Below, piece by piece: positions 9,568 to 28,464 of a stretch of 64,000 nucleotides of DNA. Each line of letters starts with the position of its first letter. The stretch's first letter is position 1. Origin of the DNA: Planctomycetota bacterium (GTDB lineage Bacteria > Planctomycetota > Phycisphaerae > Phycisphaerales > Phycisphaeraceae); contig CP066225.1 in the NCBI GenBank assembly GCA_016350165.1, positions 2,790,001-2,854,000 of the forward strand, given 5' to 3'. The notes beneath the pieces were generated by a model that ran no database searches, was not told the origin of the DNA, and was given only the letters and a program-made list of their open reading frames with translations. Both the position numbers and the translations under genes were made by a program.

Positions 9568-11337
9568 ATGAGCGAATTAAAACAAGACCTACTCTCCGGC
9601 AATGACGCCTACGCACGCGGTGCGTGGGAAGCTGGCGTCACTGTAGCCGCCGGGTATCCCGGCACGCCTTCGACTGAAATCCTCGAAGCGCTCGCTGCAT
9701 ACAAACAAAAAGACCTGCACTGCGAATGGTCTCCAAACGAGAAAGTCGCGCTCGAAGTCGGCGCTGGCGCCGCACTCACCGGTGCTCGCGTTCTCGTCAC
9801 CATGAAGCACGTCGGTCTTAACGTCGCCGCTGACCCGTTTATGACACTTGCCTATACCGGCGTCGTCGGTGGGCTCGTCATTCTCGTCGCGGATGACCCC
9901 GGCATGCACTCCTCGCAAAACGAACAGGACACACGTCACTTCGCTCGTTTCGGCAAGGTTCCAATCCTCGAACCATCCGACGCGACCGAAGCAAAAGACA
10001 TGATGAAACGCGGTTTTGAAATTTCAGAACAATTCAAAACGCCCGTCATCGTCCGTTCCACAACACGTGTATCTCACTCACGTGGTCTGGTCGATCTCGT
10101 AGACCGTGAACTGCCCGACACAAAAATCGGCTTCGAAAAGAACCCGCGTCAGTTCGTTCCGGTTCCCGCGTTCGCTCGTCAGATGCGTGTCGATCTTGAA
10201 AAACGTCTCCACCAGATCAAAGACTTCGCCGAAACTGATTCTATCAATCGGATAGAGTACAACGACAAGTCACTCGGCATCATCACCTCTTCAACCTCAT
10301 ACCTCTATGTCAAAGAAGTTTGGCCGGAAGCATCCGTCCTCAAGCTCGGCATGGCATACCCATTCGCTGACAAACTCTTCAAAGAGTTTTCAGAGAACGT
10401 TGACAACGTTCTCGTCATCGAGGAACTCGACGACTTCTACGAAGAACACATCAAAGCACTTGGCATCAAGTGCGATGGTAAAAACTTCGTACCAAACATC
10501 GGCGAATTTACCCAATCAAAACTCGCCGTCATCCGCGCAAAATACGAAGGCAAAGAAGCACCCGATCTTTCACCCGTCGCAGAAGCAACCGGCCTCCCAA
10601 TGCGGCCGCCAACACTTTGCCCGGGTTGCCCGCACCGCGGCATGTTCACCGCCCTGCGTTATTTCGACTGTATCGTCACCGGCGATATCGGTTGTTACGC
10701 ACTCGGCGTTGCGCCACCACTTTCAAGAATTGACACAATTCTTTGTATGGGTGGCGGTTTCACGATGGCGCATGGTATGGATCGTTCGCCGGAGCCGAAA
10801 AAAGTTGTTGGGATTTTGGGTGATTCGACGTTCTTTCACTCTGGAATTACAGGGCTTTGTAACATTGCTTATAACAAGGGTGCGTCGATTATTATCGTGC
10901 TGGATAACAGGACGACGGCGATGACGGGGCATCAGGATCACCCGGGTACTGGGACGACGTTGATGGGCGATCCGACGGCGTGTTTGTCTATTGAGAAGAT
11001 AGGTGAAGCGTGTGGGATTAAGCGCATCTTCAGTGTTGATCCACGTGATATTGATGATAACGTTCAGCTACTCAAACAGGAGTTTGAGATTGATGAACCG
11101 ACGTTGATTGTTGCGAAGTACCCATGTGTGCTGAATGATAAATCAGTATGGGAAGAAGCTCGTGAGATTGATGAAGAGCTGTGCGTTTCATGTGGCAATT
11201 GTGTATCGCTTGGTTGCCCTGCGATTGAGTACAACGGTGATATACCGAAGATTGAACCTTTGATGTGTACGGGTTGCTCACTTTGTGAGAACGTGTGTGA
11301 ACTTGACCTGATTCATAAGCAGGGAGAAGAAAAATGA
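9568..11337 (+). CDS. iorA: Indolepyruvate:ferredoxin oxidoreductase, alpha subunit
   Basis: A 589-residue thiamine-diphosphate enzyme subunit. With IorB it oxidatively decarboxylates arylpyruvates (indolepyruvate, phenylpyruvate) to aryl-acetyl-CoA, passing electrons to ferredoxin. Visible parts are an N-terminal pyrimidine-binding domain, the CPGCPHRGMFTALR and GDIGCYALG segments of the TPP domain with GDSTFFHSG, and a C-terminal ferredoxin domain with CVSCGNCVSLGC and CTGCSLCENVC clusters. It overlaps iorB by 4 bases. Codon third positions change abruptly near 10740, from C-ending to T/G-ending (see findings). Confidence 0.95.
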   Translation: MSELKQDLLSGNDAYARGAWEAGVTVAAGYPGTPSTEILEALAAYKQKDLHCEWSPNEKVALEVGAGAALTGARVLVTMKHVGLNVAADPFMTLAYTGVVGGLVILVADDPGMHSSQNEQDTRHFARFGKVPILEPSDATEAKDMMKRGFEISEQFKTPVIVRSTTRVSHSRGLVDLVDRELPDTKIGFEKNPRQFVPVPAFARQMRVDLEKRLHQIKDFAETDSINRIEYNDKSLGIITSSTSYLYVKEVWPEASVLKLGMAYPFADKLFKEFSENVDNVLVIEELDDFYEEHIKALGIKCDGKNFVPNIGEFTQSKLAVIRAKYEGKEAPDLSPVAEATGLPMRPPTLCPGCPHRGMFTALRYFDCIVTGDIGCYALGVAPPLSRIDTILCMGGGFTMAHGMDRSPEPKKVVGILGDSTFFHSGITGLCNIAYNKGASIIIVLDNRTTAMTGHQDHPGTGTTLMGDPTACLSIEKIGEACGIKRIFSVDPRDIDDNVQLLKQEFEIDEPTLIVAKYPCVLNDKSVWEEAREIDEELCVSCGNCVSLGCPAIEYNGDIPKIEPLMCTGCSLCENVCELDLIHKQGEEK

Positions 11338-11951
11338 GTAACACAAACAGTGATAAAGTAACGAGTGTTGTCCTGCTTGGAGTCGGTGGTCAGGGTATTT
11401 TGCTTGCGAGTGAAATTATGGCCCGTGCGGCGATGCATGCTGGTTTTGATGTGAAAACCAATGAAGTGCATGGTATGGCGCAGCGTGGTGGATCGGTTAT
11501 CGCGCAAGTACGTTATGGCAAGAAGGTTTACAGTCCTTTGATTGCTGAGCGTACGGCAGATGTTTTGGCTTCTTTCGAGAAGGTTGAAGCGGTGCGTGGT
11601 GCTCATTATGTGAAGCCGGGCGGGTTGTGTGTTATTGCGAATACACAGATCATTCCGACGACTGTTTCTTCAGGGCTTTGCGATTATCCGAAGGATATTG
11701 ATGAGCGTTTGGCGAAGGCGTTTGATAATCTGAGTTTGATTGACGCTCAACAGAAAGCTGTTGAACTTGGGAACGTTAAGGCTGCGAACGTGGTTTTGAT
11801 GGGCGGCTTGAGTGTTGGTCTGGATTTGCCTTTGGAAGTTTGGCATGAGGCTGTGAAGACATCGGTGAAGCCGAAGTTTTTGGAGCTGAACTTGAAAGCT
11901 TTCGAAGAAGGTCGCGCGATGACATTGGCCTCACAGAGCGCTGGTGTGTAA
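11334..11951 (+). CDS. iorB: Indolepyruvate:ferredoxin oxidoreductase, beta subunit
   Basis: A 205-residue gamma-type subunit of the 2-oxoacid:ferredoxin oxidoreductase family, carrying the characteristic GVGGQGILLASEIMARAA motif at residues 16-33 and the MAQRGGSVIAQVRYG segment. It forms the arylpyruvate-oxidising complex with IorA. The ATGA overlap with iorA indicates translational coupling. A CTAAY-N5-RTTAG site and a terminator follow the stop codon. Confidence 0.93.
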   Translation: MSNTNSDKVTSVVLLGVGGQGILLASEIMARAAMHAGFDVKTNEVHGMAQRGGSVIAQVRYGKKVYSPLIAERTADVLASFEKVEAVRGAHYVKPGGLCVIANTQIIPTTVSSGLCDYPKDIDERLAKAFDNLSLIDAQQKAVELGNVKAANVVLMGGLSVGLDLPLEVWHEAVKTSVKPKFLELNLKAFEEGRAMTLASQSAGV

Positions 11952-12867: not shown

Positions 12868-14649
12868 ATGTTTATGGTCTTTGCGATATTTTCTGGGTTG
12901 ATGTTGGTTGTGGGTTTGTTGGTTGTGGTTTTGGGGGTAAAGGGGAAGCGGTTGGATCGGCATGCGCTTTGTGGGAAGTGTGGGTATGACTTGTCGGGAG
13001 TGGATGTGGATGGTGAAGCGATTGTGGAGCTGAGGGGGAAGGTGTGTTCTGAGTGTGGTTGTGAGGTAGGAGTGAGAGGTATGGGAGATGGGGTCGTGAT
13101 TGGGAATCGGGAGAGGCGTCGTTGGAAGTGGGTTGTTGGTTGTGTGATGATTTTAGTTGGATTGCTGCCGGGGGTGATGATGTTGGGGGTGGTGGATGTA
13201 CAGCAATACAAATCTAATCAACTGTTAGCATGGGAGATTTTGCATCCACAGTTTAGTTTGGATGTTGATGGGGCGACTGATGAGTTGATTGATCGGTTTA
13301 ATCAGTTGAAGGTGGGTAAGGAAGTTGCTTCTGATTTGGGTGAATCTATCTTGCAATTAGGTGAAGATGAGGAAGTGGTTTGGGATCAGAGGTGGGGGAG
13401 GATTTTGTTTGAGATACATAAGGATGGGGGATTGGATAAGAAGCAGCGAGGCAGGTGGGTGGAGATGATGACGAAGGAGTGGGAGTTGGGGAGGCCGGGG
13501 CGCGTATCGCCTGAGCATTTGGATGATGTTTTGGTTTGGTACAAGTTGTGGCCTTGCGAGGATTATCGTGGTTGGTTTTATGATGATCCTAAGCCGACGA
13601 CTAGAGGGGGAAGATCTTATAGCTGGATGGGTTTTATCAAGCGTGTGTATTTGGATGATTATGTGCTGATTAATCGAGGTAGGGATGGGTATAGTGGGGA
13701 TATGATGCAGCGCGGTTTTCATGTTGGAGGAAATTTGTTTGAGGGTTCTGGGAAACGTTTAAATGAGATTCGTGAGGAGGCGGGTAAGGATGAATTTCGA
13801 TTGGTGATTGATTTTGAGGTTGAGGTGTTTAGTGGTGGCGGGAATATGAGTTTTAAGCATGTGGTGAAGCGAGATATGGGAGAGTTATTGTTGGTGGATG
13901 AGGAGCCACGTGCGAGGTTGTTGAAGGATGAAGAGAAGTTAAAGCGGGTGCAGCGGATGATTAGGCCTAGTGGTCAGACTCGGTTTCATACGTTATATGT
14001 AGGCGGGCCAGGTGGGAGATATTATGAGCCGTTTACATTGAAGGGCGAGTGGTTTGAGCCTGAGCGGTATTTATCTGCTGAAGAGTTTGAGAATGAAGTG
14101 AATCGGAATGGTCGGATATTTGAGCGGCATATTAATTTTGCAGTGGTGTTTGATATTGATAGTAGGGCAGCGAAATATCGTTTGCCATCGTTAGAGCTAT
14201 TTAGTGGTTATGAGTTTGTGGAGGGGCCAATGATGTATGAGGTTATTTTGAGGATTAATGGCAAGGAGTATGAGCAGGGAATGTATGTTGGTGAGAAGCG
14301 ATTGAAGGCGAGAGGAGAGCAGGGTTGGCGGGGTAATGGGTTATGGTTGCCACGTGGGTTGATGCGCGTGAAGGGGAATGTGGGAGATGTGATATTAAGG
14401 CCTGCGGCGGGTTATGCGTATCGTCATGAACACTTGGAAGAAATATTGGATGGTGAAATTGTTTTTGAGAATGTGAAGTTGTTGCGTTTGGATTATGGGG
14501 AAGTGGTGCAGGCGAGAACGCAGGGGAGATCGGGGTGGATTGATTTGAGGGATCGCGCGAAAGCGTTGATGGTGGAGTTGGGTGAGTTTGAGAGTGTGGA
14601 GGCGGTGGAAGCGTATTCGGAGGAGAAGCGTGAGGAGAAATTGAAGTGA
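12868..14649 (+). CDS. Zinc-ribbon membrane protein, tandem paralog A
   Basis: A 593-residue protein I cannot assign to a named family. TM1 is at about residues 2-24. A four-Cys zinc ribbon has C35, C38 (CGKCGYDLSG) and C60, C63. A basic stretch precedes TM2 at about 88-108. The large remainder is probably extracytoplasmic. It has the family signatures VQQYKSNQLLAWEILHP (just after TM2), a W..RILFEIHKDGGLD helical element, PFTLKGEW, EYEQGMYV and a DVILRPAAGYAYRHEHLEEI block near the C-terminus. It is the first of five paralogs reaching 21353. Coding-strand base use is extremely G-rich and C-poor. Confidence 0.75.
   Translation: MFMVFAIFSGLMLVVGLLVVVLGVKGKRLDRHALCGKCGYDLSGVDVDGEAIVELRGKVCSECGCEVGVRGMGDGVVIGNRERRRWKWVVGCVMILVGLLPGVMMLGVVDVQQYKSNQLLAWEILHPQFSLDVDGATDELIDRFNQLKVGKEVASDLGESILQLGEDEEVVWDQRWGRILFEIHKDGGLDKKQRGRWVEMMTKEWELGRPGRVSPEHLDDVLVWYKLWPCEDYRGWFYDDPKPTTRGGRSYSWMGFIKRVYLDDYVLINRGRDGYSGDMMQRGFHVGGNLFEGSGKRLNEIREEAGKDEFRLVIDFEVEVFSGGGNMSFKHVVKRDMGELLLVDEEPRARLLKDEEKLKRVQRMIRPSGQTRFHTLYVGGPGGRYYEPFTLKGEWFEPERYLSAEEFENEVNRNGRIFERHINFAVVFDIDSRAAKYRLPSLELFSGYEFVEGPMMYEVILRINGKEYEQGMYVGEKRLKARGEQGWRGNGLWLPRGLMRVKGNVGDVILRPAAGYAYRHEHLEEILDGEIVFENVKLLRLDYGEVVQARTQGRSGWIDLRDRAKALMVELGEFESVEAVEAYSEEKREEKLK
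13214..13228. repeat. CTAAY-N5-RTTAG palindrome, site 6 (in coding sequence)
   Basis: CTAATCAACTGTTAG, encoding part of SNQLLA right after TM2 of paralog A; sites 7 and 9 sit at the same protein position in paralogs B and D. Confidence 0.6.
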
Positions 14650-14759
14650 GGGGGTGAAGGTGAGTCGTTTAGTGTTGTGTTTCGAGTGAGCAGTTAGGAT
14701 AATTGTTGTTGTGATTTTGGTGTGAGGATTTTTAAGGTTGTTTTTAGCCGGGGTTATCG

Positions 14760-15800
14760 ATGATTGCTTATATTTATATTGTTTTTGTAGGGTTATTGGC
14801 GGTGGGTGGTGTTGCGGTGGCTGTGAAAGCGTTATTTGGAAAGCAGATTGATGATCATGGGTATTGCTGGTCGTGTGGTTATGATTTGACTGGTAAGGAT
14901 TTGGTGAAGGGGAGTGAAGAAGCTGAGGAGATTGTGAAGGGGTTGATGGGGCGTGCGTGTCCGGAGTGTGGTGATGTTTTTGAGGATGGAAGTGGGCTTC
15001 AGGTTGGGAAGCGAGCACATCGCAGAGGGTTGTGGGTTTTGAGTATTGTGATGTTTTTGCCGATGGGGGTGATGTTTAGTGATACGGATTGGCAACAGTT
15101 GATGCCTAACCGTGTGTTAGTGTGGGAAATGAAATCGCCTGAGATGATATATAACTATGATCGGGCGATTGGTGAGCTGGAGGCACGCGTGGTTGGTGGT
15201 GGAGTGAGTGATGCGATGATGGAAGAGTTGGTAGAGTATGTGCTTGAGGTATGTGAGGATGGGCGGATGTATAACAGCCGATGGGGAACGTTGATGATTG
15301 ATCTATATGAGGCTGGGGGGATGACTAATCAACAGATAGAGCGCTGGATTGAAGTGCTTGCGAAGGGTTGGGCGTTTAATGTGCCTGAGCGGGTGGGAAT
15401 GAGTGAGATAGATGAGGCGATGGTGGGGTTTGAATTTCATGCAGGGGAGAATGGGCGGGGGTGGTGGCACTCGATTATGGATGTGAAAATGCGGCGGGAG
15501 TGGGAGGTAAAGTTGTTGAAGGTGCGTTTGGGTGAACGTGTTGTGAAAGAAGGGGATATTTCGTGGTCGCGATTGATGATGAAGGCGGAATCGGGGGTGA
15601 TAGCGAATCACTTGCTATTCAGGAATACAGGGGATGATGTGGTGGAAATGATGGCGGAGAAGGGAAACGGCGAGTTTGAATTGTGGCTGACGTTTGAGGT
15701 GGAGCTATTTTGTGATAAGCCTGGAGAGAGTTATAAGCATGTGGTGGAAGTAAAGGCAGGGGATGTGGTATTTTATGATGATGAAATGGATGAAGAGTGA
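14760..15800 (+). CDS. Zinc-ribbon membrane protein, tandem paralog B (short)
   Basis: A 346-residue paralog of the gene at 12868. TM1 is about residues 3-25. The zinc ribbon has C36/C39 (CWSCGYDLTG) and C67/C70 (CPECG), and TM2 is about 90-108. The WQQLMPNRVLVWEM motif and the RWGTLMIDLYEAGGMTNQQIERW helical element are present. It ends after the first beta-type region (LTFEVELFCDKPGESYKHVV) and lacks the PFTLKG and DVILRP blocks of the long members, so it is either a naturally short form or C-terminally truncated. Function unknown. It starts 110 bases after paralog A and ends 48 before C. Confidence 0.72.
   Translation: MIAYIYIVFVGLLAVGGVAVAVKALFGKQIDDHGYCWSCGYDLTGKDLVKGSEEAEEIVKGLMGRACPECGDVFEDGSGLQVGKRAHRRGLWVLSIVMFLPMGVMFSDTDWQQLMPNRVLVWEMKSPEMIYNYDRAIGELEARVVGGGVSDAMMEELVEYVLEVCEDGRMYNSRWGTLMIDLYEAGGMTNQQIERWIEVLAKGWAFNVPERVGMSEIDEAMVGFEFHAGENGRGWWHSIMDVKMRREWEVKLLKVRLGERVVKEGDISWSRLMMKAESGVIANHLLFRNTGDDVVEMMAEKGNGEFELWLTFEVELFCDKPGESYKHVVEVKAGDVVFYDDEMDEE
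15106..15120. repeat. CTAAY-N5-RTTAG palindrome, site 7 (in coding sequence)
   Basis: CTAACCGTGTGTTAG, in the PNRVLV codons of paralog B. Confidence 0.6.
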
Positions 15801-15848
15801 GTTGTTGTGAAGGTGCGAATGATTTAATAGTGATTTCGGGATAAGAAG

Positions 15849-17666
15849 ATGATATTGATATTGACGATGATTGTTAGTCTGATTGCGATTGTGGGCTTTG
15901 TGCTTGTGGTCGTGGGATTGTTTGGTGTGAAGGTGGATGGTCATGTTTATTGCAGCGAGTGCGGTTATGATCTTTCGGGGTTGAGTTTGGAAATGGATAA
16001 AGGTGAGGTGAGGAAGGGGAAGCAGTGTAGTGAGTGTGGGTATAAGTTTCAGGGGTGGGGTGGTGAGGTGAGAGTTGGAAAGCGAAAGAAGCGTAAGGGG
16101 GTGGCGGTGATGGGGTTGGTGATGATCGTGATTGGCTTATTGCCAGTGGTTGGTTCTTTGATGAGTGTGAGTTGGCAGCAGCATAAGCCGAGCGAGTTGC
16201 TTGTGTGGGAGGTTGGGCATCCTGAGTTGAGTATGGATGTGAAGGACGCACAGGAGGAATTGCGTGAGAGAATGAATGGTGGGAAGTTGTCGAAGGGGAT
16301 CATGTCGGATTGGGCGCGGGCAATTTTGCGATCAGGTGATGCGGATGTAAATAATATGGATCTAGGTGTTTGGAGTGATTGGCTTGCGCTGCATCATGCG
16401 GGTGGATTGGATGATGAGCAGAAGCGTGGTTTTGTTGAGTTGATGTTTGCGTATGAATTGAAGGTGCCACGGCAGTTGTCGGTTGAGCATTTGAAGGGTG
16501 TGAAGTATGGGTTTGGTGTGCCAGCAGGGCGAGACCGGATTGAACATACGATTTTTGAAGCGCATATGCAGTGGGGGAAAGCTGGTGGTACGTATTATGA
16601 GCATGAGCTTCGGGTGTTGGATGTGATGGTGAATGGGAAGAAAGTTTTTGAGGTTGAGGAGGATGAGTCAGAGCGGAACAAATTGAGTTTGAATAGTCCT
16701 GTTGTTTATAGTGGTTTGGATCTGATGTTGCCTGGGCTGGAGAGATTGGGGAGTGAGATTGAGAAGGCGATGGGTGATGAGAAGGAGGGGGAGTTGGGGG
16801 TGAGGATGCGTGTGAAGATGTTTGCTGGTGTGAAGGGGATGGAGTTTGAGCATGATATTTTGGTTGAGGGTGGGAGGTTTGAATTGGTGGATGAATTGCC
16901 TCGTGCGAAGTTGGTGAGGGATGAGAAGAAGTATGAGGAGGTGAGGACGAGGTTGTGGCCTAGCAGTACGATGCAGTTGAATGCGTATAATGCGAATGGT
17001 CAGAATCAGTATTTTGCGCCGTATACGATGAAGGGGATTGCGTGGGAGCCTAATCAATGGTTAGGGAGAAGGTTTTGGGAGGGCGAGTATTATCGCGAGA
17101 ATAGAGATCATGAGAATCATTTGAATTTTTTGATGGTTTACGAAGAGCAGGTGGGGGTGGAGCGACCTGAGTGTGTGAGTGATTGGGGGTTTGTGACGTT
17201 GAATGGGGAATTGGATGGGCCGATGTGTTACAGGGTGGTGTTGCGCGTTGATGATGTGGAGTATGAGCAGGATGAATGGGTGGTGGTGAAAGAGCATGGG
17301 CGATTTGGTGGGAGCTTTATGCGGAAGTTGTTTTTGCCTGCGGAGGTTGAAGCTGAGAAGGCGGATGTGATTTTGAGGCCTGACGAAGTGAGGGCGATGA
17401 ACCGTGAGTATATGGATGAGATTTTGGCTGGTGAGCTTGTTTATGAGAATGTGAATCTGATTCGTATTTCGGTTGATGAAGTGAAGCGGTTGAAGGAAGA
17501 GCATGAGAAGGTACGAAAGCAGAATAGTGCTAAGGGGGAATGGCGGACAGATTATTGGGAGCAGTATCGGGATGTGGCGAAGCAGCGGTTGGTGGATGAT
17601 GGTGTGTTTGGGAGTTTGGAGGTATTGGAAGGGTATATTGATGAGGTGAAGGGGGAGAAGGAATGA
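15849..17666 (+). CDS. Zinc-ribbon membrane protein, tandem paralog C
   Basis: A 605-residue long-form paralog of the gene at 12868. TM1 is residues 2-24. The zinc ribbon has C35/C38 (CSECGYDLSG) and C60/C63 (CSECG). The basic GKRKKRKG precedes TM2 at about 85-105, followed by WQQHKPSELLVWEVGHP. It keeps the helical W..WLALHHAGGLDDEQ element, PYTMKGIAW, EYEQDEWV and DVILRPDEVRAMNREYMDEI. The SELL variant removes the palindrome found at this point in A, B and D, but another palindrome is at 17050. It overlaps the next gene by 4 bases (ATGA). Function unknown. Confidence 0.75.
   Translation: MILILTMIVSLIAIVGFVLVVVGLFGVKVDGHVYCSECGYDLSGLSLEMDKGEVRKGKQCSECGYKFQGWGGEVRVGKRKKRKGVAVMGLVMIVIGLLPVVGSLMSVSWQQHKPSELLVWEVGHPELSMDVKDAQEELRERMNGGKLSKGIMSDWARAILRSGDADVNNMDLGVWSDWLALHHAGGLDDEQKRGFVELMFAYELKVPRQLSVEHLKGVKYGFGVPAGRDRIEHTIFEAHMQWGKAGGTYYEHELRVLDVMVNGKKVFEVEEDESERNKLSLNSPVVYSGLDLMLPGLERLGSEIEKAMGDEKEGELGVRMRVKMFAGVKGMEFEHDILVEGGRFELVDELPRAKLVRDEKKYEEVRTRLWPSSTMQLNAYNANGQNQYFAPYTMKGIAWEPNQWLGRRFWEGEYYRENRDHENHLNFLMVYEEQVGVERPECVSDWGFVTLNGELDGPMCYRVVLRVDDVEYEQDEWVVVKEHGRFGGSFMRKLFLPAEVEAEKADVILRPDEVRAMNREYMDEILAGELVYENVNLIRISVDEVKRLKEEHEKVRKQNSAKGEWRTDYWEQYRDVAKQRLVDDGVFGSLEVLEGYIDEVKGEKE
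17050..17064. repeat. CTAAY-N5-RTTAG palindrome, site 8 (in coding sequence)
   Basis: CTAATCAATGGTTAG, in the PNQWLG codons of paralog C; the same 15-mer recurs at 48161. Confidence 0.6.
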
Positions 17667-18109
17667 GGTTTATTTGGTGTGTGCTAAAGGTTTTGATGTG
17701 GGTTCACATGATGGGGATGCCGACGGTTGTGATGGGGTATTTTTTGGCAGCGACTTATTCTGGACGATCGTTAGATCAGTTGGGGTGGACGAGGATGGTT
17801 GTGCATTTAATTGCGGTGCTGCTGATGATCGGGCTGATGATTTATGTGGTTATTCATGATGTGTTGTGTGGTGGGAAGAGAGTTGGGATGTTGAGCGAGC
17901 AGGGCGTGAGCCGATTTTGGTTGATGGCTTTGATTGGTGGGGGAAGTTCGATGTTATGGTGGTCTGTTTTTGTAGTGTTTATGATGGGTGGATTGGGTTA
18001 TGGGGGCGGTGTTATGGTTTTTGTGGTTTGGCTATTAACGGCTGTGGTGACGATGGGGATGTTGAGGTGGAGTCATTACATTGGGTGGTATCATGGGGGG
18101 AAGGCGTGA
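17663..18109 (+). CDS. Small multi-pass membrane protein
   Basis: A 148-residue protein with about four transmembrane segments (around residues 5-30, 45-65, 88-110 and 115-135). It overlaps paralog C by 4 bases, so it belongs to the same operon. No family was recognised. Its TGA stop at 18107 is followed in the same frame by 45 codons encoding a zinc ribbon of the type attached to many planctomycete membrane proteins. The predicted protein may therefore be missing its C-terminal domain (see next entry). Confidence 0.65.
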   Translation: MRFIWCVLKVLMWVHMMGMPTVVMGYFLAATYSGRSLDQLGWTRMVVHLIAVLLMIGLMIYVVIHDVLCGGKRVGMLSEQGVSRFWLMALIGGGSSMLWWSVFVVFMMGGLGYGGGVMVFVVWLLTAVVTMGMLRWSHYIGWYHGGKA

Positions 18110-18247
18110 CACTGCATGGGGTGTGGTTATGATTTGAAGGGTACGATTGCAGCGGGTTTTGAGCGGTGTCCTGAGTGTGGACTGGGGCATGGGAAGGAAA
18201 GGTACCGGGAGTATATGAAGGATTTGATCAGTAAAGAAATTGGTTGA
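18110..18247 (+). pseudogene. Zinc-ribbon tail, in frame after a TGA stop
   Basis: Directly after the TGA at 18107-18109 and in the same frame as the preceding membrane gene, 45 codons read HCMGCGYDLKG ... RCPECGLGHG and end at a TGA at 18245. Spacing and sequence match the Cx2CGYDL...CPECG ribbons of the neighbouring paralogs. An internal ATG at 18116 would lose the first Cys. It may be a nonsense-mutated C-terminus, a read-through product or a sequencing error. The maintained codon pattern argues the loss is recent or that the segment is still translated. Confidence 0.55.
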
Positions 18248-18274
18248 TCCTGATTGAGTGATGGAGTGATTCGG

Positions 18275-20128
18275 ATGATTTTGATTGCTGGTTTGATTGT
18301 TTTAGGTTTGCTTGCGGTGGTGGGGCTTGTTTTGTTTGTGAAGGGTCATCGTGGTGTGAAGGTGGATGATCATGCGCATTGTGGTGGGTGTGGATATGAC
18401 TTGTCGGGGATGAGTAAGGACATGAAGGTTGAAGAGAATAGGGTGGGGGAGGTTTGCGCGGAGTGTGGGGCGGCGCTTGATGGGGGGAAGGGTGCGGTTT
18501 GGAATGGGAAGTGGGAGAAACGTAGTGGGATGTTGATGGGCGGTATGGGATTGATGTTGCCGATGGTTGTGGTGGTTTGTGTATGGGGGTGGAGTTCATC
18601 GCGTGACGTAGATTGGAATCAATATAAGCCTAACCGATGGTTAGTGTGGGAGGTTGTGCATCCGAGGATGAGTGGTGATGTGAAGGCGGTGATGAATGAG
18701 ATATTGCAGCGGGAAGCTTTGGGGGAGATTGATCTGACGAAGTATGAGGGGCTGGGTGAGTCTATATTGGCTTTAGGTGATGATGAGGGATTGGAATGGG
18801 AGGATGTATGGGGGGATTTGTTGGTGCGGCTGCATGAGCGGGAGGGTTTGAGTGAGCGGGCACGTCAGCAGTGGGTTGCGCTATTGTCACGTGATTGGGG
18901 AATTGTGATGCAGGAAAAGATGGGGCTTGAGAGTTTGGATCAGGTTTTGGTGTGGGTGAAATCGATCAATAATGATCGAGCGGGTGGTGTGAGTATGTCG
19001 AATTCGCCAGGCGGGCGGCCTACTTTTAAGCTTGAGGTTGTGGAGATGTCGGTTGATGGTGAAGTGATTGGCGTGTTGGAAGGTTTGGAGTTGAGCCGAT
19101 CACCGATGAGGCCGGATTATTGCCATGTGAAACTTGAAGGTTGGGAGCAAACGCATGATGAATTGAAAGATATTTATTTGCGAAGGGGAGAAGAGGCTAA
19201 TCATGAGTTAGAAGTAAGGTTGTCGGTGAAAATGTTTGATGGTGAGCAGGGATTGGATTTTGAAGATGAGGTTGTGCTGAGGAGCGGGGAATTTAGGTTG
19301 TTGGATGGGGTAGTTGGTTCGAAGTTAGTGAAGGATGAGGGGAAGCGTGATGCGGTGAAGCGAGAGGTGATGCCTTGCAGTTTGGGTGCGGTGGAGACAA
19401 GTGGGCAGTTCATTAATAATTCTGAGTATATTGTGACGCCATATACGAAGCATTTGATGGATCAGGTTGAGGGGCGCGCGTTTGTTGAGCCAGATAATAC
19501 GACTTGGGATGGATCGCGCTCGAGATTTGAAACAATCAATGCGCATGTTGTTTATGTTTGGGAGCAGGAAACGAAGGAAACACAGTTGTATTTTTCGCAG
19601 TTTATAGGTTTTAAGGGAGTGGGGATGCCGTTTTGCTATAAGCCTATCATACGGATAGATGGGGAAGAATATGAGCAGAGCGGGCGAGTAACAGGGGAAG
19701 GCAGTATCCATACTTATGAATGGGTACGTAAAGAGTATGCCAAGAATGCTGCTGTGGTTTGGAAGGATGAACCGATGCGGTTGCCTCGGGAGGTGATGGC
19801 GAAGCATGGGATGCGCGGGATGCGAGCGGATTTGATCTTGCGAGCTGATCCGGTGTATGCATATAACGCAGAGCATATGGATGAGATTGTGGGTGGTGAT
19901 GTTGTTTATGAAGATGTGCTGCTGCTGTTTGTGAGAGAGCAGGAGATGCGTGATGCGAAGATGTATGGCACGCGTGGTTATGGAACGCGAGGTGAGGAGA
20001 CGGATGGGTTTATTTCTGAGCGGGTGAAGCGGCTATTGGTGAAAGAAGATGAGTTTGAGAGTGTGGCGGTGCTTGAGGCGTATGTGGATGGGAAGCGTAA
20101 GGATCGAGGTGATGTTTCGGAGGATTGA
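18275..20128 (+). CDS. Zinc-ribbon membrane protein, tandem paralog D
   Basis: A 617-residue long-form paralog. TM1 is residues 1-23. The zinc ribbon has C36/C39 (CGGCGYDLSG) and C61/C64 (CAECG), and TM2 is about 85-108. NQYKPNRWLVWEVVHP follows, then the helical WGDLLVRLHEREGLSERARQQW element, TPYTKHL, EYEQSGRV and DLILRADPVYAYNAEHMDEI. The ATG at 18275 matches the start of paralog C; an in-frame TTG at 18254 would add seven residues. Two CTAAY-N5-RTTAG sites lie inside. Function unknown. Confidence 0.74.
   Translation: MILIAGLIVLGLLAVVGLVLFVKGHRGVKVDDHAHCGGCGYDLSGMSKDMKVEENRVGEVCAECGAALDGGKGAVWNGKWEKRSGMLMGGMGLMLPMVVVVCVWGWSSSRDVDWNQYKPNRWLVWEVVHPRMSGDVKAVMNEILQREALGEIDLTKYEGLGESILALGDDEGLEWEDVWGDLLVRLHEREGLSERARQQWVALLSRDWGIVMQEKMGLESLDQVLVWVKSINNDRAGGVSMSNSPGGRPTFKLEVVEMSVDGEVIGVLEGLELSRSPMRPDYCHVKLEGWEQTHDELKDIYLRRGEEANHELEVRLSVKMFDGEQGLDFEDEVVLRSGEFRLLDGVVGSKLVKDEGKRDAVKREVMPCSLGAVETSGQFINNSEYIVTPYTKHLMDQVEGRAFVEPDNTTWDGSRSRFETINAHVVYVWEQETKETQLYFSQFIGFKGVGMPFCYKPIIRIDGEEYEQSGRVTGEGSIHTYEWVRKEYAKNAAVVWKDEPMRLPREVMAKHGMRGMRADLILRADPVYAYNAEHMDEIVGGDVVYEDVLLLFVREQEMRDAKMYGTRGYGTRGEETDGFISERVKRLLVKEDEFESVAVLEAYVDGKRKDRGDVSED
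18630..18644. repeat. CTAAY-N5-RTTAG palindrome, site 9 (in coding sequence)
   Basis: CTAACCGATGGTTAG, in the PNRWLV codons of paralog D. Confidence 0.6.
19197..19211. repeat. CTAAY-N5-RTTAG palindrome, site 10 (in coding sequence)
   Basis: CTAATCATGAGTTAG, in the ANHELE codons of paralog D. Confidence 0.6.
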
Positions 20129-20159
20129 TGGGTAAGCAAGGGATGAAGGCAGGGCTGAT

Positions 20160-21353
20160 ATGGTGTATCTATATATAGATAAGATTTTGATTCTGATTGC
20201 AGGTGGGATGTTGTTGCTGCTGGTTGGGCTGCGCGGCAGAAGGGTGGACGATCACGTGCTTTGTGGTGCGTGTGGGTATGACTTGTCGGGGTGTAAAGTA
20301 GAGATGAATGATGCAGAAAAGCGGGCGGGGCAGCAGTGTCCGGAGTGTGGGAAATGGTTTACGAAGAAGCAGCGTGAGGTGAAGGTTGGGAACCATGTGA
20401 AAAGGACGTGGATGATCTGGTGTGGGAGTGTGATGGTGGGATGCGGCTTGTTGTTTGGCGCTTACGTGGTGAATGGCGTTCAGTTGCGGCAGTGGAAGAG
20501 TAATGGGGTGCTGATCTGGGAGATGAGTCATCCTGGTGTGAGCGTGAATTCTGGCCAGGTGGGTGCGGAGCTGGTGGCGCGGATGTGGCGGGGGGATTTG
20601 AATGCAGATGAACTTGAGGAGCTAAAAGAGATTGTATTTGTTGATGGGCTGGAGGATGAAGGGGGTGTGTGGAAGCAGGGGATGCGGATTTTGTTTGATG
20701 CGTTGTGGGAGAGCACATTAACGGCGGAGGAGATGGAGTCGGCAGCGGAGCGGATTTTGGTGAGAGCGGAGCGGGAGGAGATGCTTTGGGAATCATGTTG
20801 GGCGGATTTGCTGATGGGGTTGCATGAAAAGGGGCGACTGAGTGAAGGCCAGAAGCGGCGGTGGGTGGAGATTATGGCAAAGGATTGGGAGGTTGTGCTT
20901 GTGACGGGGCGTGAGGAAGTGAGGATTGAAAGGGTGGGTGAGTTGTGGGTGGTGGAAGGTGATCCGGGGCTGGTGATGATCGATTTTGGATGGACAGGAG
21001 TGAATTTTACTCATGGTTGGAATGCGGGGAATATGAAATTGAGGTTTGTGGAGATGGAAGTGCGGGTGAAGGAGTTATGGGTGAATGGTGAGATGGTGGA
21101 GAGGGTTGATGAGGATGAGGTGTATTCGGAGCGCGCTGGGCCGAATTATAAGGAGGCGACGAATCTGGGGTTGGTGAGTGAGGAGATTAGAAGTGTGATG
21201 ATGGAGGATGTGAATAAGGGTGAAGGAGTTGAGTTGGGTGTTGTTGTTGAGGTGAAACTATTTGCAGGGGATGAGAAGCTGGAGATTGTGAAACGTGCAG
21301 CGTTGGAGCCAACGTCTGTCGTGCTTCAGGAGAAGGGTGAAGCTGAGGAGTGA
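20160..21353 (+). CDS. Zinc-ribbon membrane protein, tandem paralog E (short)
   Basis: A 397-residue paralog. TM1 is residues 5-24. The zinc ribbon has C35/C38 (CGACGYDLSG) and C60/C63 (CPECG), and TM2 is about 80-100. RQWKSNGVLIWEMSHPGVS follows. The helical element occurs twice in tandem (WKQGMRILFDALWESTLTAEEM and WADLLMGLHEKGRLSEGQKRRW), so this copy carries an internal duplication. Like paralog B it stops before the PFTLKG and DVILRP blocks. It starts 31 bases after paralog D and is the last gene of the array. Function unknown. Confidence 0.72.
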   Translation: MVYLYIDKILILIAGGMLLLLVGLRGRRVDDHVLCGACGYDLSGCKVEMNDAEKRAGQQCPECGKWFTKKQREVKVGNHVKRTWMIWCGSVMVGCGLLFGAYVVNGVQLRQWKSNGVLIWEMSHPGVSVNSGQVGAELVARMWRGDLNADELEELKEIVFVDGLEDEGGVWKQGMRILFDALWESTLTAEEMESAAERILVRAEREEMLWESCWADLLMGLHEKGRLSEGQKRRWVEIMAKDWEVVLVTGREEVRIERVGELWVVEGDPGLVMIDFGWTGVNFTHGWNAGNMKLRFVEMEVRVKELWVNGEMVERVDEDEVYSERAGPNYKEATNLGLVSEEIRSVMMEDVNKGEGVELGVVVEVKLFAGDEKLEIVKRAALEPTSVVLQEKGEAEE

Positions 21354-22008: not shown

Positions 22009-24297
22009 TTGCCCGTGAACATTGTTATAGGGAATATGTACCTCTTGGACTGGATATTGGTCGGCATTTTGCTGGTCGGTATCATTGGGTTGGCGTATTA
22101 CACGAAGCGGTATACGAAGAGTGTGGCGGACTTCTTGGCGGCGAACCGTTGTGCGGGTCGTTACTTGCTGGCGGTATCTGAGGGGATGGCTGGTCTTGGC
22201 GCGATTTCAGTTATCGCACAGTTCCAGATGTTCTACAACGCTGGCTTTACGGCGACATTCTGGTCGTTAGCGTCGGCACCTATCTATATTATGATCACGC
22301 TGTCGGGGTATGTGATTTATAGATATCGTGAAACGCGTGCGATGACGTTGGCTCAGTATTTTGAGATGCGTTACAGCAAGGGCGTTCGTATTTATGCGGG
22401 TATTCTGGCTTGGGTTGCGGGTATCGTGAACTTCGGCATCTTCCCGGCAGTGGGTGCACGTTTCTTTATCTACTTCTGCGGCATCCCGCGTTATATTCTT
22501 GGTGATGCTGATCAGGGTGGTGGCTACATCGTTGCAACAAGTACAAAAGTAACTCACTATCTGGCGAGCGGCGAGGTTACGACATACGTTGGTGAAGCAC
22601 TTTCAAAAGTTGATTTGCAAGCACTCAGTTTCCATTTCTTGTTTGCACAGATTGACCTGACCTATATTGCAATCATGATCGGCTTGCTGGCTGTTTCACT
22701 GTTCTTTGTATTCATGGGCGGACAGATTGCTGTGATGGTGACCGACTTTGTGCAGGGTACATTCACATACATTGTCATGCTCGCGATTATCGGCTTCATC
22801 TTCTACAAGCTTTCATGGAGTGATATCACGACGACGCTGATTGAAGAAGCACCTGAAAAACAGAGCATGTTGAATCCGTTTGATACGGAGAAGACGGCAG
22901 GCTTTAATCCGTGGTTCTACTTCATCAGTATCTTCGGTATGCTTATCACCTACATGAGTTGGCAGGGCAGTGCGGCTTACAACAGTAGTGCTAAGAATGC
23001 TCACGAAGCAAGGATGTCGAAGATTCTTGGTTCGTGGCGTGCAATGATCACGACGATGGCGATCATGTTGCTGCCGATTGGTGTGTGGGTGTTAATGCGT
23101 TTTGGTACTTCAGATGCGGATGCATTAGCAGCGAACGTTGACAGTACGTTAGCGATGGTTGGTAACGAAAGTATTCAGAATCAGATGCGCGTACCTTTGG
23201 CTTTGACGCAAGTTTTGCCGATTGGCATCACGGGTATGTTCTGTGCGGTCATGCTTTTTGCTTTTATCTCGACACACGATACTTACTTGCATAGTTGGGG
23301 TAGTATCTTTATTCAGGACGTAATCCTGCCATTCCGTAAGAAACCATTTACGCCTAAACAGCATATTTGGTTGTTACGTTTTTCAATCCTGTTTGTCGCA
23401 TTCTTTATTTTCCTGTTTAGTCTTTTCTTCCAGCAGAGTCAGTATATTTTGATGTTCTTTGCGATTACCGGCGCGATTTATGCTGGTGGCGCGGGGCCGA
23501 TCATTATCTTTGGCCTTTACTGGAAACGTGGTAGTGTTAAAGCTGCTTGGGCATCACTCACGATTGGTTGGGCAACTGCAATTACAGGCATGATCCTGCA
23601 GAATGGCTGGGAAAGCTGGTGGCATCCATTCTTAACTAATTATGCACCAGGTGTTCTTAGTGGGTTGGATTCACTGTTCGCTTTGATTCGAGAAAACGTG
23701 TGGGGTATCAACTGGGAAATCACACCTAAAAAATTCCCGATTGATGGACAGTGGTTCTTCTTCTTCTCAATTATTCTTTCGCTTACAACCTATATCACGC
23801 TTTCGCTGATGGATGCATACATCTTTGGTAAGCCTGCTCATAACATGAAACAGCTCCTTCACCGCGGTGAATACCGCATCGAAGATGATCATTCATCGAA
23901 AGAAGCACCTCCAAGTGGCTGGCGTGCGATCCTTCCAAGTTCAGAATTTACTTGGCGTGATAAGCTTGTTTACTGGGGTAACTTCGCTTGGGTTATGATT
24001 TGGTTTGCAGTCTTCCTGTTCGTCATCATCTCCAACTTCGTTATTGATAATAAATTCAGCGATGAAAACTGGGGGATGTTCTGGGCGATCCAGGTTGGCG
24101 CATCGATTCTTCTCTGTATCTTCACCGTTATCTGGTTCCTCATCGGTGGCGTGCGTGATATGATCGAAATGTTCAAGACGCTCTCAACTGCTAAACGCGA
24201 CGCTATGGACAACGGTATGGTTCACGATGGTCACAGCCTTGTTGATGATGAACTTGTTGAACATGCTGAGGAAGTTGAAGAAGCTACTAACGCCTAA
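22009..24297 (+). CDS. Sodium:solute symporter family transporter
   Basis: A 762-residue inner-membrane transporter of the SSS family, driving uptake of a small solute (sugar, amino acid or organic acid) with Na+. The N-terminal pattern YTKRYTKSVADFLAANRCAGRYLLAVSEGMAG and the RETRAMTLAQYFEMRYSKGVRIYAG block are typical. There are about 13-14 transmembrane segments with a long C-terminal extension. Substrate cannot be read. Start is uncertain: TTG at 22009, GTG at 22015 (better placed after AGGTGA) or ATG at 22036. The next gene encodes a secreted carbohydrate-binding-like protein, so a sugar-related substrate is possible. Confidence 0.85.
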   Translation: MPVNIVIGNMYLLDWILVGILLVGIIGLAYYTKRYTKSVADFLAANRCAGRYLLAVSEGMAGLGAISVIAQFQMFYNAGFTATFWSLASAPIYIMITLSGYVIYRYRETRAMTLAQYFEMRYSKGVRIYAGILAWVAGIVNFGIFPAVGARFFIYFCGIPRYILGDADQGGGYIVATSTKVTHYLASGEVTTYVGEALSKVDLQALSFHFLFAQIDLTYIAIMIGLLAVSLFFVFMGGQIAVMVTDFVQGTFTYIVMLAIIGFIFYKLSWSDITTTLIEEAPEKQSMLNPFDTEKTAGFNPWFYFISIFGMLITYMSWQGSAAYNSSAKNAHEARMSKILGSWRAMITTMAIMLLPIGVWVLMRFGTSDADALAANVDSTLAMVGNESIQNQMRVPLALTQVLPIGITGMFCAVMLFAFISTHDTYLHSWGSIFIQDVILPFRKKPFTPKQHIWLLRFSILFVAFFIFLFSLFFQQSQYILMFFAITGAIYAGGAGPIIIFGLYWKRGSVKAAWASLTIGWATAITGMILQNGWESWWHPFLTNYAPGVLSGLDSLFALIRENVWGINWEITPKKFPIDGQWFFFFSIILSLTTYITLSLMDAYIFGKPAHNMKQLLHRGEYRIEDDHSSKEAPPSGWRAILPSSEFTWRDKLVYWGNFAWVMIWFAVFLFVIISNFVIDNKFSDENWGMFWAIQVGASILLCIFTVIWFLIGGVRDMIEMFKTLSTAKRDAMDNGMVHDGHSLVDDELVEHAEEVEEATNA

Positions 24298-26049: not shown

Positions 26050-28464
26050 ATGACGAACGACACGGTACTGGGTAAAGATTCTGCTCCACAAGTGAGCGAA
26101 GACCAACTCGAACACTTTAGCTACGACGACAAAATCGTACGTATGTTCCTTACAGCTATGCTGGTTTGGGGCATCGTCGCTTTCCTCGTTGGCCTTATCG
26201 TTGCGATCGAGCTCTTTCTCCCATCACTCAAAGAGTCACTGCTTAACGGTGTACTTGCCAGCATCCTCCCAGCTGTCTTTTCTGACATGTTTGTCAATCT
26301 CATCGACAAATTCTTCAGCATCGAATACCTCACATTCGCACGACTGCGTCCACTGCATACCAACGCAGCCATCTTTGCATTCGCAGGCAACGCTATTTTT
26401 GCTGCTGTCTATTACTCCACACAACGCCTTTGTAAAGCACGTATGTGGTCAGATAAACTCAGCAAGATGCACTTCTGGGGTTGGCAGCTCATCATCGTTT
26501 CTGCTGCACTGACACTTCCACTGGGCATTACCCAAAGTAAAGAATACGCTGAACTAGAATGGCCAATCGATATCGCAATAGCCGTTGTTTGGCTCGGTAT
26601 CTTTGGCGGCAACTTCATGATGACCGTTCTCAAACGTCGTGAACGTCACATGTATGTTTCAATCTGGTTCTACATCGCAACCATCGTCACCGTTGCACTG
26701 CTCCACGTCTTCAACAACCTCGTTGTCCCCTCCGGCTTCCTCAAGAGCTACCCAATCTATGCCGGCGTTCAAGACGCTTTCATGCAGTGGTGGTACGGTC
26801 ACAACGCCGTCGCATTCTTCCTCACCACACCATTCCTCGGGCTCATGTATTACTTCCTCCCCAAAGCCGCCGACAGACCAGTCTTCTCATACAGACTCTC
26901 AATCATTCACTTCTGGTCACTCGTCTTCATCTACATCTGGGCCGGCCCGCACCACCTTCACTACACCGCATTACCTGACTGGGCATCATCACTTGGCATG
27001 CTCTTCAGTCTCATGCTTTGGATGCCTTCATGGGGTGGCATGATCAACGGTCTCCTCACACTCCGCGGCGCTTGGCATAAAGTACTTTCCGATCCAGTCC
27101 TCAAGTTCTTCGTCGTTGCTATAACCTTCTATGGCATGTCGACATTCGAAGGTCCTCTACTCTCAATCAAATCAGTCAACGCACTGTCACACTACACTGA
27201 CTGGACCATTGCTCACGTTCACGCGGGCGCACTCGGCTGGAACGGCTTCATGGCCTTCGGCATGCTCTACTGGCTCGCACCACGTATTTTCCAAGCAAAA
27301 CTCTGGTCACAAAAAATGGCCAACGCTCACTTCTGGATGGCAACCATCGGCATCCTCCTCTATGTTCTCTCCATCTACGTTGCAGGCCTGACCCAAGGTT
27401 TGATGTGGCGTGCGATTGATGACAACGGCCAACTTCAATATGCCGACTTCATCGTCACCATCGATTCAATCATTCCAATGTACTACGTCCGTGCTCTCGG
27501 CGGCGGGCTTTTCCTCGTCGGTGCACTCGCTTGTGCATTCAACTACTTCATGACTTGGAAAAACCGTCCAGCTAAATATGACGAACCAACATACGCAGCT
27601 GCACCACTTAAGAAAGTTTATGAAGGCAAAGAAGCTACTGCTGAAGCACGTCTCGAAGGCGTCGCAGACATGGCCAAAGCAATTGATAAATTCAATCAAT
27701 TCAAATGGCACCGTCGTTGGGAACGTCTCCCAGTTCGCTTCACCATCTTCGTCGTCATCAGTGTTGTTGTTGCATCTCTCTTTGAGATCATCCCAACCTT
27801 CCTCATTCGCTCTAACGTGCCAACCATCGCTAGTGTAAAACCATACACGCCACTCGAACTCGCTGGTCGTGACGTTTACATTGCGGAAGGTTGTTACAAC
27901 TGTCACTCACAGATGATTCGACCTATTTTTGCTGAGGAATTACGTTACGGCGAATACTCCAAGCCAGGCGAATTTGTCTACGATCACCCACACCAATGGG
28001 GCTCACGCCGCATCGGTCCAGACCTCGCACGTGAGGGTGTCACCCGCCCATCAGCAGTCTGGCACTATCGCCACTTCCTCAACCCACCAGACACCTCGCC
28101 GCGTTCTGTCATGCCGCCATATCCATGGTTGTTTGAAAAGGAACTCGCATGGTCATCAATCAAAACTCGTGTCTGGGCAATGCGTGCTCTCGGCGTCCCA
28201 TACTCTGACGAAGAATATGCAAACGCTCGCGAACTTGCAGAAGAGCAAGCCAAAGATGTCGTCGCAAAACTCGTAGCCGACGCGCCTTCACTCGCACGTA
28301 AAGCGAAAGACCTCGAGAAAACTGAAGGTATCGCACTTATCGCATATCTCCAACGTCTCGGCACAGACATCACGAAAGAAGTTGATGAAGACGCAGCCGA
28401 TGTCAAAGATACAGCAAATGAAGTTGCATCAGACAAGGAAGCTAAGCCGGAAGTCGGCGGCTAA
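26050..28464 (+). CDS. ccoNO: Fused cbb3-type cytochrome c oxidase subunits I and II
   Basis: An 804-residue fusion of CcoN and CcoO, the catalytic core of the high-affinity cbb3 terminal oxidase in the inner membrane. CcoN part (about 1-500): haem ligands H103 and H389/H391 (HVHAG), CuB ligands H251 (YGHNAV) and H301/H302 (PHHLHYT), about 12 membrane helices. CcoO part (about 560-790): one membrane helix, then c-haem motif CYNCH at 615-619 and IRPIFAEELRYGEYS. Separate genes are the norm in proteobacteria. It is first in the operon ccoNO-Q-P-G-H-safE-I-S. Confidence 0.95.
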   Translation: MTNDTVLGKDSAPQVSEDQLEHFSYDDKIVRMFLTAMLVWGIVAFLVGLIVAIELFLPSLKESLLNGVLASILPAVFSDMFVNLIDKFFSIEYLTFARLRPLHTNAAIFAFAGNAIFAAVYYSTQRLCKARMWSDKLSKMHFWGWQLIIVSAALTLPLGITQSKEYAELEWPIDIAIAVVWLGIFGGNFMMTVLKRRERHMYVSIWFYIATIVTVALLHVFNNLVVPSGFLKSYPIYAGVQDAFMQWWYGHNAVAFFLTTPFLGLMYYFLPKAADRPVFSYRLSIIHFWSLVFIYIWAGPHHLHYTALPDWASSLGMLFSLMLWMPSWGGMINGLLTLRGAWHKVLSDPVLKFFVVAITFYGMSTFEGPLLSIKSVNALSHYTDWTIAHVHAGALGWNGFMAFGMLYWLAPRIFQAKLWSQKMANAHFWMATIGILLYVLSIYVAGLTQGLMWRAIDDNGQLQYADFIVTIDSIIPMYYVRALGGGLFLVGALACAFNYFMTWKNRPAKYDEPTYAAAPLKKVYEGKEATAEARLEGVADMAKAIDKFNQFKWHRRWERLPVRFTIFVVISVVVASLFEIIPTFLIRSNVPTIASVKPYTPLELAGRDVYIAEGCYNCHSQMIRPIFAEELRYGEYSKPGEFVYDHPHQWGSRRIGPDLAREGVTRPSAVWHYRHFLNPPDTSPRSVMPPYPWLFEKELAWSSIKTRVWAMRALGVPYSDEEYANARELAEEQAKDVVAKLVADAPSLARKAKDLEKTEGIALIAYLQRLGTDITKEVDEDAADVKDTANEVASDKEAKPEVGG

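What the first reader, a model, noticed from the sequence alone, without database searches (positions are those of the whole stretch)
12868..21353. Five tandem paralogs of an unassigned zinc-ribbon/transmembrane protein family
Genes at 12868, 14760, 15849, 18275 and 20160 all have TM1, a Cx2CGYDL(S/T)G...CxECG zinc ribbon, TM2, a W-x-Q-x-(K/M)-x-N/S-x-L-(V/A)WE motif, a helical GGLS..Q..RW element and beta-rich C-terminal parts. Three are long (593-617 residues). Two (346 and 397) stop before the PFTLKG and DVILR blocks, and one has the helical element duplicated. Tandem amplification with domain loss suggests a diversifying surface or sensing system. I recognise no named family.
Basis: partly seen in the sequence, partly recalled or inferred. 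Interest (0 to 1): 0.8.

Follow-up and report, generated by a model that had tools for sequence, protein, structure and literature searches.

The report
Unnamed planctomycete membrane zinc-ribbon protein array
Five neighbouring genes in a deep-sea planctomycete encode old, highly diverged copies of a membrane protein with a probable zinc-binding knob and an outer domain, a family that appears to have no name yet; the DNA around them also shows an unusual repeating strand bias that deserves its own study.

Summary
Pfam, NCBIfam, PADLOC and PDB-sequence searches do not name the family, which in my samples occurs only in its own order; ZRK32 has at least 31 members and further arrays. Anatomy: TM1, CxxC...CxxC ribbon (predicted cytoplasmic), TM2, then an outer helical bundle, a partly modelled Ig-like sandwich and an unmodelled C-terminal part that two members lack. 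Most likely self-contained envelope receptors or scaffolds (inferred). They are not a recent amplification: deeply diverged, no supported clade, and absent at the syntenic P. corsica site. The claimed helix duplication in gene 5 is not supported. Much of the divergence follows extreme strand composition (third-position GC skew 0.84-0.88). Following this up showed a sawtooth of DNA-strand skew in both Poriferisphaera species: abrupt minus-to-plus jumps about every 45 kb, then slower decay, independent of gene direction, and absent from 200 kb of each of two other genera of the family. That side finding is unexplained and more surprising than the array.

The parts
12868..14649 (+). Gene A, long member, 593 aa
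12871..12942 (+). Gene A TM1 (residues 2-25)
   Evidence: hydropathy; helix 2-25 in AF2 model
12970..13056 (+). Gene A zinc ribbon, CxxC...CxxC (residues 35-63), predicted cytoplasmic
   Evidence: invariant cysteines; pattern in 47 of 50 tree members; positive-inside
13120..13191 (+). Gene A TM2 (residues 85-108)
13216..13473 (+). Gene A helical bundle (residues 117-202), predicted outside
   Evidence: AF2 block pLDDT 73-91 for residues 111-200
13480..13893 (+). Gene A Ig-like beta sandwich (residues 205-342), predicted outside; only partly confident
   Evidence: AF2 block pLDDT 72-88 for 251-270 and 291-340, 39-65 for 201-250 and 48-53 for 271-290; VIA Z up to 6.2
13903..14646 (+). Gene A C-terminal part (residues 346-593), absent from genes B and E; fold undetermined
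   Evidence: alignment; AF2 mean pLDDT 47.5
14760..15800 (+). Gene B, short member, 346 aa, stops after the first beta domain
15849..17666 (+). Gene C, long member, 605 aa
17663..18109 (+). ORF M, 148 aa, four hydrophobic segments, no match in 20 relatives or elsewhere in own genome
18254..20128 (+). Gene D, long member, 624 aa from TTG (617 aa from ATG 18275)
20160..21353 (+). Gene E, short member, 397 aa, with a ~45-residue insertion in the helical region
9568..11951 (+). Conserved left flank: two ORFs; the second is an indolepyruvate oxidoreductase beta subunit (NF005325 over its cut-off), the first presumed alpha, not scanned; syntenic in P. corsica
22009..24297 (+). Conserved right flank: sodium/solute symporter-like protein (TIGR00813, 96.5 bits, below its cut-off of 184); syntenic in P. 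corsica
10741..10741 (.). GC-skew jump (minus to plus) left of the array

Best explanation
The five genes are paralogs of a lineage-specific family of cell-envelope proteins. Shown by sequence: a two-TM hairpin holding a CxxC...CxxC ribbon, then a long soluble part. Inferred from charge: the ribbon is in the cytoplasm and the soluble part is outside the inner membrane. Predicted: the outer part starts with a helical bundle followed by an Ig-like sandwich, and long members add a second, beta-rich part. Inferred function: each protein acts alone as a membrane-anchored envelope receptor or scaffold, its outer domains contacting an envelope polymer or a partner protein, and its ribbon acting as a zinc-stabilised cytoplasmic anchor or docking knob. 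Several divergent copies give variants with and without the terminal domain. They work like, but are not members of, the zinc-ribbon/TM/outer-domain proteins of Firmicutes such as TcaA and YvbJ (recalled, no call).
For: Anatomy and homology. Ribbon in 47 of 50 tree members. Of 46 ribbon-bearing members that could be scored, 45 have two clear TMs and all 45 have more K/R in the ribbon loop than in the 60 residues after TM2 (mean 0.21 against 0.10). AF2 model good for residues 111-200, 251-270 and 291-340; the sandwich resembles generic beta sandwiches. At least 31 family ORFs in ZRK32, about half of them singletons or pairs whose neighbours did not recur by eye, which fits self-contained function. 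One ortholog pair at a site that looks syntenic by eye (L020/L066; 43% identity) and orthologs in G028 of three of the six G032 array members (starred branches) show long retention.
Against: No functional data. No fold match is strong (best VIA Z 6.2, Foldseek best E 1.3e-2). Part of the sandwich (201-250, 271-290) and the C-terminal half are poorly modelled. Array absent at the syntenic P. corsica site, so it is dispensable in the genus. Fast divergence and composition drift suggest weak constraint outside the core. One member pair (L011) lies beside ORFs that look by eye like a response regulator and a kinase, which would fit the sensor rival.
Confidence: 0.45

Rival explanations
1. Weakly constrained expansion: the copies are kept by slow turnover and drift, with only the membrane/ribbon core under selection and no dedicated role for the array.
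For: 26-36% identity within the array; amino-acid make-up follows strand skew (glycine 10.5 against 2.7%, threonine 2.1 against 8.4% in picked G-rich and C-rich members); absent at the P. corsica site; 32 matching stretches in ZRK32 (a lower bound, 33 of 62 candidates scored) against 8 in P. corsica.
Against: All five frames are intact over 8.5 kb with invariant cysteines; three members of the G032 array keep orthologs in G028, two at 52-55% identity and one at 28%.
Confidence: 0.3
2. Signal-transducing sensors: ligand binding outside changes the TM hairpin and the cytoplasmic ribbon binds a regulator or nucleic acid.
For: Topology; a conserved ribbon with flanking DxH and GNRxRR residues; the L011 pair lies beside ORFs on the opposite strand that look by eye like a response regulator and a sensor kinase (not scanned).
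Against: No such neighbours recognised by eye at the other listed places; no signalling domain in Pfam for the members.
Confidence: 0.15
3. Phage-defence or exclusion proteins at the envelope, diversified in arrays at a variable locus.
For: The site is variable between the two species, and the P. corsica version appears to hold transposase-like and Rhs-like remnants (read by eye, not scanned).
Against: No PADLOC family beyond one weak hit in 1 of 43 members (E 0.0066); about half of the members lie as singletons or pairs beside ordinary-looking genes.
Confidence: 0.1

Closest known systems
TcaA / YvbJ-type zinc-ribbon membrane proteins of Firmicutes (recalled)
   Same: Cytoplasmic zinc ribbon joined through the membrane to a large outside domain
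   Different: Two TMs with the ribbon between them instead of an N-terminal ribbon and one TM (layout of TcaA/YvbJ recalled); no TcaA-named Pfam match in 43 members
Generic Pfam zinc ribbons (DZR PF12773, Zn_ribbon_1 PF13240, Zn_ribbon_3 PF13248)
   Same: CxxC...CxxC spacing
   Different: Only sub-threshold scores (12-15 bits against cut-offs of 25-27.3)
Ig-like sandwich proteins (LEA14 1xo8, complement C5 domains, clostridial adhesin CPE0147) and STAT cores
   Same: Overall arrangement: sandwich of residues ~200-345 (Z 4.8-6.2; LEA14 row spans 151-345); STAT cores align over helices plus sandwich, residues ~122-345, Z up to 5.7
   Different: Z below 8, identity about 4-13%: may be only a common arrangement, no evidence of kinship

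Membership tests
Phycisphaerales two-TM zinc-ribbon family (defined here) | TM1 - CxxC...CxxC - TM2 - long outer part | tested here: met
   All five; 45 of 46 scorable members
Phycisphaerales two-TM zinc-ribbon family (defined here) | In the genomes sampled, found only in the same order | tested here: met
   7 of 196 phylum-wide genomes match at E 1e-5; all 7 are among the 10 listed of the same order; at most 8 candidates per genome were scored and 169 genomes without a match were not listed. 23 of 41 relatives at E 1e-3. A sample, not exhaustive
TcaA / YvbJ type | Single TM after an N-terminal ribbon (recalled) | tested here: not met
   A TM precedes the ribbon and another follows it
TcaA / YvbJ type | Match to its Pfam outer-domain models | tested here: not met
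   43 members: 5 Pfam families at E 0.01, each in one member, none TcaA-named
Pfam zinc-ribbon families | Score over the curated cut-off | tested here: not met
   Six proteins
Ig-like fold | Clear structural match of the outer domain | tested here: inconclusive
   Best Z 6.2, model mean pLDDT 62.3
Zinc binding | Bound Zn(II) | not testable with these tools
   Cysteine pattern only

The most novel reading that the evidence does not exclude
Poriferisphaera chromosomes carry, on top of the ordinary one-origin skew, an origin-like point source of strand-asymmetric mutation about every 45 kb, giving a sawtooth like the N-domains of human DNA at roughly a twentieth of their length. The array lies on the steep limb right of one such point, and the process shapes where and in which direction tandem arrays persist and even which amino acids the proteins use. 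If the sources are real initiation sites, this would be a bacterial chromosome with many dispersed origins.
Probability: 0.2. Interest if true: 0.92.

Novelty: new variant of a known kind. Interest (0 to 1): 0.5.

Why it matters
The family is an unnamed part of the planctomycete envelope with at least 31 members in one cultured species, so it is open to genetics. It also shows how strand-biased composition can remake paralogs until their kinship is hard to see: picked homologs differ about four-fold in glycine and threonine content. The sawtooth behind that bias does not fit the usual two-replichore picture of a bacterial chromosome and is directly testable in two cultured strains.

Tried and rejected
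Named families: Pfam on six proteins and on 43 members, NCBIfam (nine proteins of which five are family members; weak hits only for those), PADLOC on 43 members, PDB sequences with gene C (none) and with a 43-row profile (10 sequences up to E 1). The last gave an Aart zinc-finger hit, E 1.3e-10 over 22 residues around one CPECG, a consensus-finger hit (E 4e-6) and a DUF1610 protein (E 0.078); I take the first two as composition-driven, this being judgement and not a test. PHROGs was not searched.

Fold search: STAT cores head the Foldseek list (query TM-scores at most 0.18, rmsd above 12) and recur in the VIA list over residues ~122-345 with Z up to 5.7 and rmsd about 4.5-8; below the Z 8 that the tool's note asks for, so not used. 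The C-terminal part alone gave pLDDT 47.5, too poor to search.

Duplicated helix in gene 5: not supported. In the same call the helical element of gene C scores only 43 against a shuffle maximum of 52, so that element is weak in gene C taken alone. Promoter and terminator scans gave no more than chance (11 against 11.4, 5 against 4.3).

Sawtooth alternatives: gene direction (rejected); inversions (would give up and down jumps alike; up jumps dominate at 0.4 and above, though at 0.3 the counts are 16 and 12 in ZRK32); a shared motif at the jumps (one 7-mer, p 5e-7 before correction for 3191 tests, not convincing). Many origins remain open, but dnaA at 2.498 Mb and the sign change of the spaced samples around there show a one-origin layer underneath, which speaks against it.

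Papers: listings; nothing in those listings on the family or on a sawtooth in planctomycetes (only the top rows were listed). PMC10945688: passages. PMC12288469: passages. PMC3320577: passages. The TcaA search found no usable paper, so that comparison is recalled.
Full report
OBSERVATION. The five ORFs exist at the stated coordinates. They are homologous: gene A (12868) to C (15849) 32% over 621 aa, E 4e-74; A to D (18275) 30% over 620 aa, E 5e-64; B (14760) and E (20160) match the N-terminal halves. 32 columns are invariant in all five, including D30, H32, C35, C38, GYDL, C60 and C63 of gene A. B and E end after the first beta domain; tblastn found no remnant of the missing part just downstream. 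A 148-aa four-TM ORF (17663-18109) overlaps the end of C by 4 nt and has no match elsewhere in own genome or in 20 relatives. The claimed duplication in E is at chance level.

WHERE IT IS. The window is 2,790,001-2,854,000 of a single 5,234,020-bp contig. PMC10945688 gives exactly that length for Poriferisphaera heterotrophicis ZRK32 and 4,291,168 bp for P. corsica KS4 (passages), the length of the same-genus genome G001.

FAMILY. A profile of the five finds 48 matching stretches at E up to 0.1 in the own genome. All but two of those places were fetched or lie in the window; 31 non-overlapping ORFs of 150 aa or more at E < 1e-5 were counted there, out of 85 ORFs at E <= 0.01 over all loci then scanned. 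23 of 41 genomes of the relatives search, own included, match at E 1e-3; ZRK32 has 32 matching stretches (33 of 62 candidates scored, so a lower bound) and P. corsica 8. Phylum-wide, 7 of 196 genomes match at E 1e-5, all among the 10 listed of the same order; at most 8 candidates per genome were scored. The single genome-contig scan gave 4 loci from 90 pattern matches, all metagenome bins titled Phycisphaerales or Phycisphaeraceae. Tandem arrays occur elsewhere: three long members in L010; weaker relatives in pairs of unequal length in L053 and L057 and five in a row in L056 (E 1e-5 to 6e-3); six in G032 (L062), three of which have orthologs in a G028 array. No library searched names the family.

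NOT A RECENT AMPLIFICATION. In a 50-member tree (E < 1e-9; 35 of the 85 hits left out) the five fall in a weakly supported group (81/73) with L009, L010, L011 and L013 members of the same genome and two long-branched P. corsica rows. Of the five only A and B pair with each other (98/72); the five were one group in 0% of 200 bootstrap trees, though starred branches do not exclude one origin; median end branch 1.22. In P. corsica the same flanking genes (95% and 75% identical proteins) enclose ~9.8 kb with no family member by tblastn (best E 0.18). By eye, what is there includes transposase-like, Rhs-like, prepilin-like and chemotaxis-like ORFs (not scanned). So the site differs between species, by gain or loss.

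ANATOMY. Of 46 ribbon-bearing members that could be scored, 45 have hydrophobic segments on both sides, and all 45 have the denser K/R loop at the ribbon (0.21 against 0.10; net charge +5.6 against -1.3): ribbon inside, C-terminus outside, short N-terminus outside. Three of 50 tree members lack the CxxC...CxxC pattern. The AF2 model of gene A (8 rows) has mean pLDDT 62.3: blocks 73-91 over 111-200, 72-88 over 251-270 and 291-340, but 39-65 over 201-250, 48-53 over 271-290 and poor values after 350. The outer part is modelled as a helical bundle plus an Ig-like sandwich. VIA-align gives middling Z (6.2 for LEA14, 6.0 for NIS1, up to 5.7 for complement C5 and for STAT cores, the latter over helices and sandwich together), which by the tool's own note may be only a common arrangement. 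The C-terminal part alone failed to model.

MECHANISM. Shown: homology, anatomy, intact frames. Inferred: topology and zinc binding. Proposed: stand-alone envelope receptor or scaffold with a zinc-stabilised cytoplasmic knob, like TcaA/YvbJ in layout (recalled) but not a member (TM count differs; no TcaA-named Pfam match). Neighbours of singletons and pairs did not recur by eye; one pair (L011) lies beside response-regulator-like and kinase-like ORFs.

COMPOSITION AND THE SAWTOOTH. The array lies where GC skew is +0.57 to +0.64 per 2 kb; third-position skew of the five is 0.84-0.88. Homologs elsewhere in the genome range from +0.70 to -0.60 on the coding strand, and their amino acids follow (glycine 10.5 against 2.7%, glutamate 10.9 against 3.6%, threonine 2.1 against 8.4% in 9 G-rich and 10 C-rich members picked by me, three of the latter from P. 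corsica). The skew is a property of the DNA strand, not the gene: neighbouring ORFs in opposite orientation have correlated top-strand third-position skew (r 0.75, 106 pairs, ZRK32; r 0.78, 88 pairs, P. corsica), whereas in G009 of the same family it is -0.43 (44 pairs). Along 464 kb around the window it forms a sawtooth: jumps between adjacent 2.5-kb windows of at least 0.5, 7 up and 0 down; 0.4, 10 and 3; 0.3, 16 and 12. P. corsica, 400 kb: 8 and 0; 9 and 2; 11 and 5. G009 and G004, 200 kb each: none at any of these thresholds. 'Every 45 kb' uses the 0.4 threshold; a filter with sign conditions listed 9 for the same 464 kb. Single 3-20 kb samples of other family genomes reach at most 0.35. 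T goes with G (r 0.73). 90 matching segments (not filtered to one-to-one) keep the skew with r 0.70 and 78% same sign; the rest differ, for example P. corsica is clearly positive over most of what matches window 22-36 kb, where ZRK32 is near zero or negative. One jump lies in the same 345-aa gene in both species within about 100 bp (ZRK32 2668172, P. corsica 236649). For the jump at window 10741 a sign change lies in the same gene in P. corsica about 250 bp away (L078:4350, found by looking only in the first 6 kb), but the unguided detector puts the P. corsica jump about 4.5 kb further on, beyond a stretch of low skew, so that case is less clear. dnaA is at 2,498,075; ten spaced 20-kb samples before 2.4 Mb average 0.01 or less, and nine of ten after 3.1 Mb are positive: an ordinary origin layer lies underneath. 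The shape recalls human N-domains, where abrupt upward jumps mark predicted initiation zones (PMC3320577, passages). I cannot say what the bacterial sources are.

LINK. Arrays of three or more ORFs (E up to 0.01) are G-rich on the coding strand in 6 of 6 cases in ZRK32 (7 of 7 with one in P. corsica, whose four ORFs include two below the threshold), singletons and pairs in 4 of 14 (Fisher p 0.011 and 0.004, counts entered by hand and judged after the fact). G-rich coding means pointing away from the jump of that limb, but the jump itself was located for only two of the six ZRK32 arrays (window and L056). This is suggestive only.

VERDICT. The array is real, unnamed and moderately interesting; it is old and species-variable, not freshly amplified. 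The strand-skew sawtooth is the stronger surprise.

Noticed in passing
whole window; jumps at window 10741 and 37230; G000:C1:2590001-3054000; P. corsica 1-400000: Sawtooth of DNA-strand GC skew: abrupt minus-to-plus jumps roughly every 45 kb, then slower decay, independent of gene direction, in both Poriferisphaera species and not in 200 kb of each of two other genera of the family.
   Followed up: partly
G000 2668172 / P. corsica 236649; window 10741 / L078:4350; window 37230: One jump lies inside the same gene in both species within about 100 bp; the one at window 10741 is less clear in P. corsica; the one at window 37230 (found by cumulative skew) has no counterpart at the matching P. corsica segments. 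Several jumps fall inside genes that look like housekeeping genes by eye.
   Followed up: partly
window 17663-18109: 148-aa four-TM ORF overlapping the stop of gene C by 4 nt, without a match in 20 relatives or elsewhere in its genome.
   Followed up: partly
L053, L057, L069: Other arrays alternate ORFs of ~490-545 and ~340-355 aa in pairs, several of them weak or sub-threshold relatives of this family, with high coding-strand G skew.
   Followed up: no
L078:5436-15246 (P. corsica): The matching site in P. corsica holds a different set of genes between the same flanks, read by eye as transposase-like, Rhs-like, prepilin-like and chemotaxis-like.
   Followed up: no
L011:6482-11251: A pair of family members lies beside ORFs on the opposite strand that look by eye like a response regulator and a sensor kinase.
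   Followed up: no
G000:C1:2246839-2247315: A second DnaA-domain match (175.5 bits, open frame 546 aa) besides the one at 2498075.
   Followed up: no
window 26050-28464: A single ORF joins a COX1 domain and a FixO domain, that is, apparently fused cbb3-type oxidase subunits.
   Followed up: no
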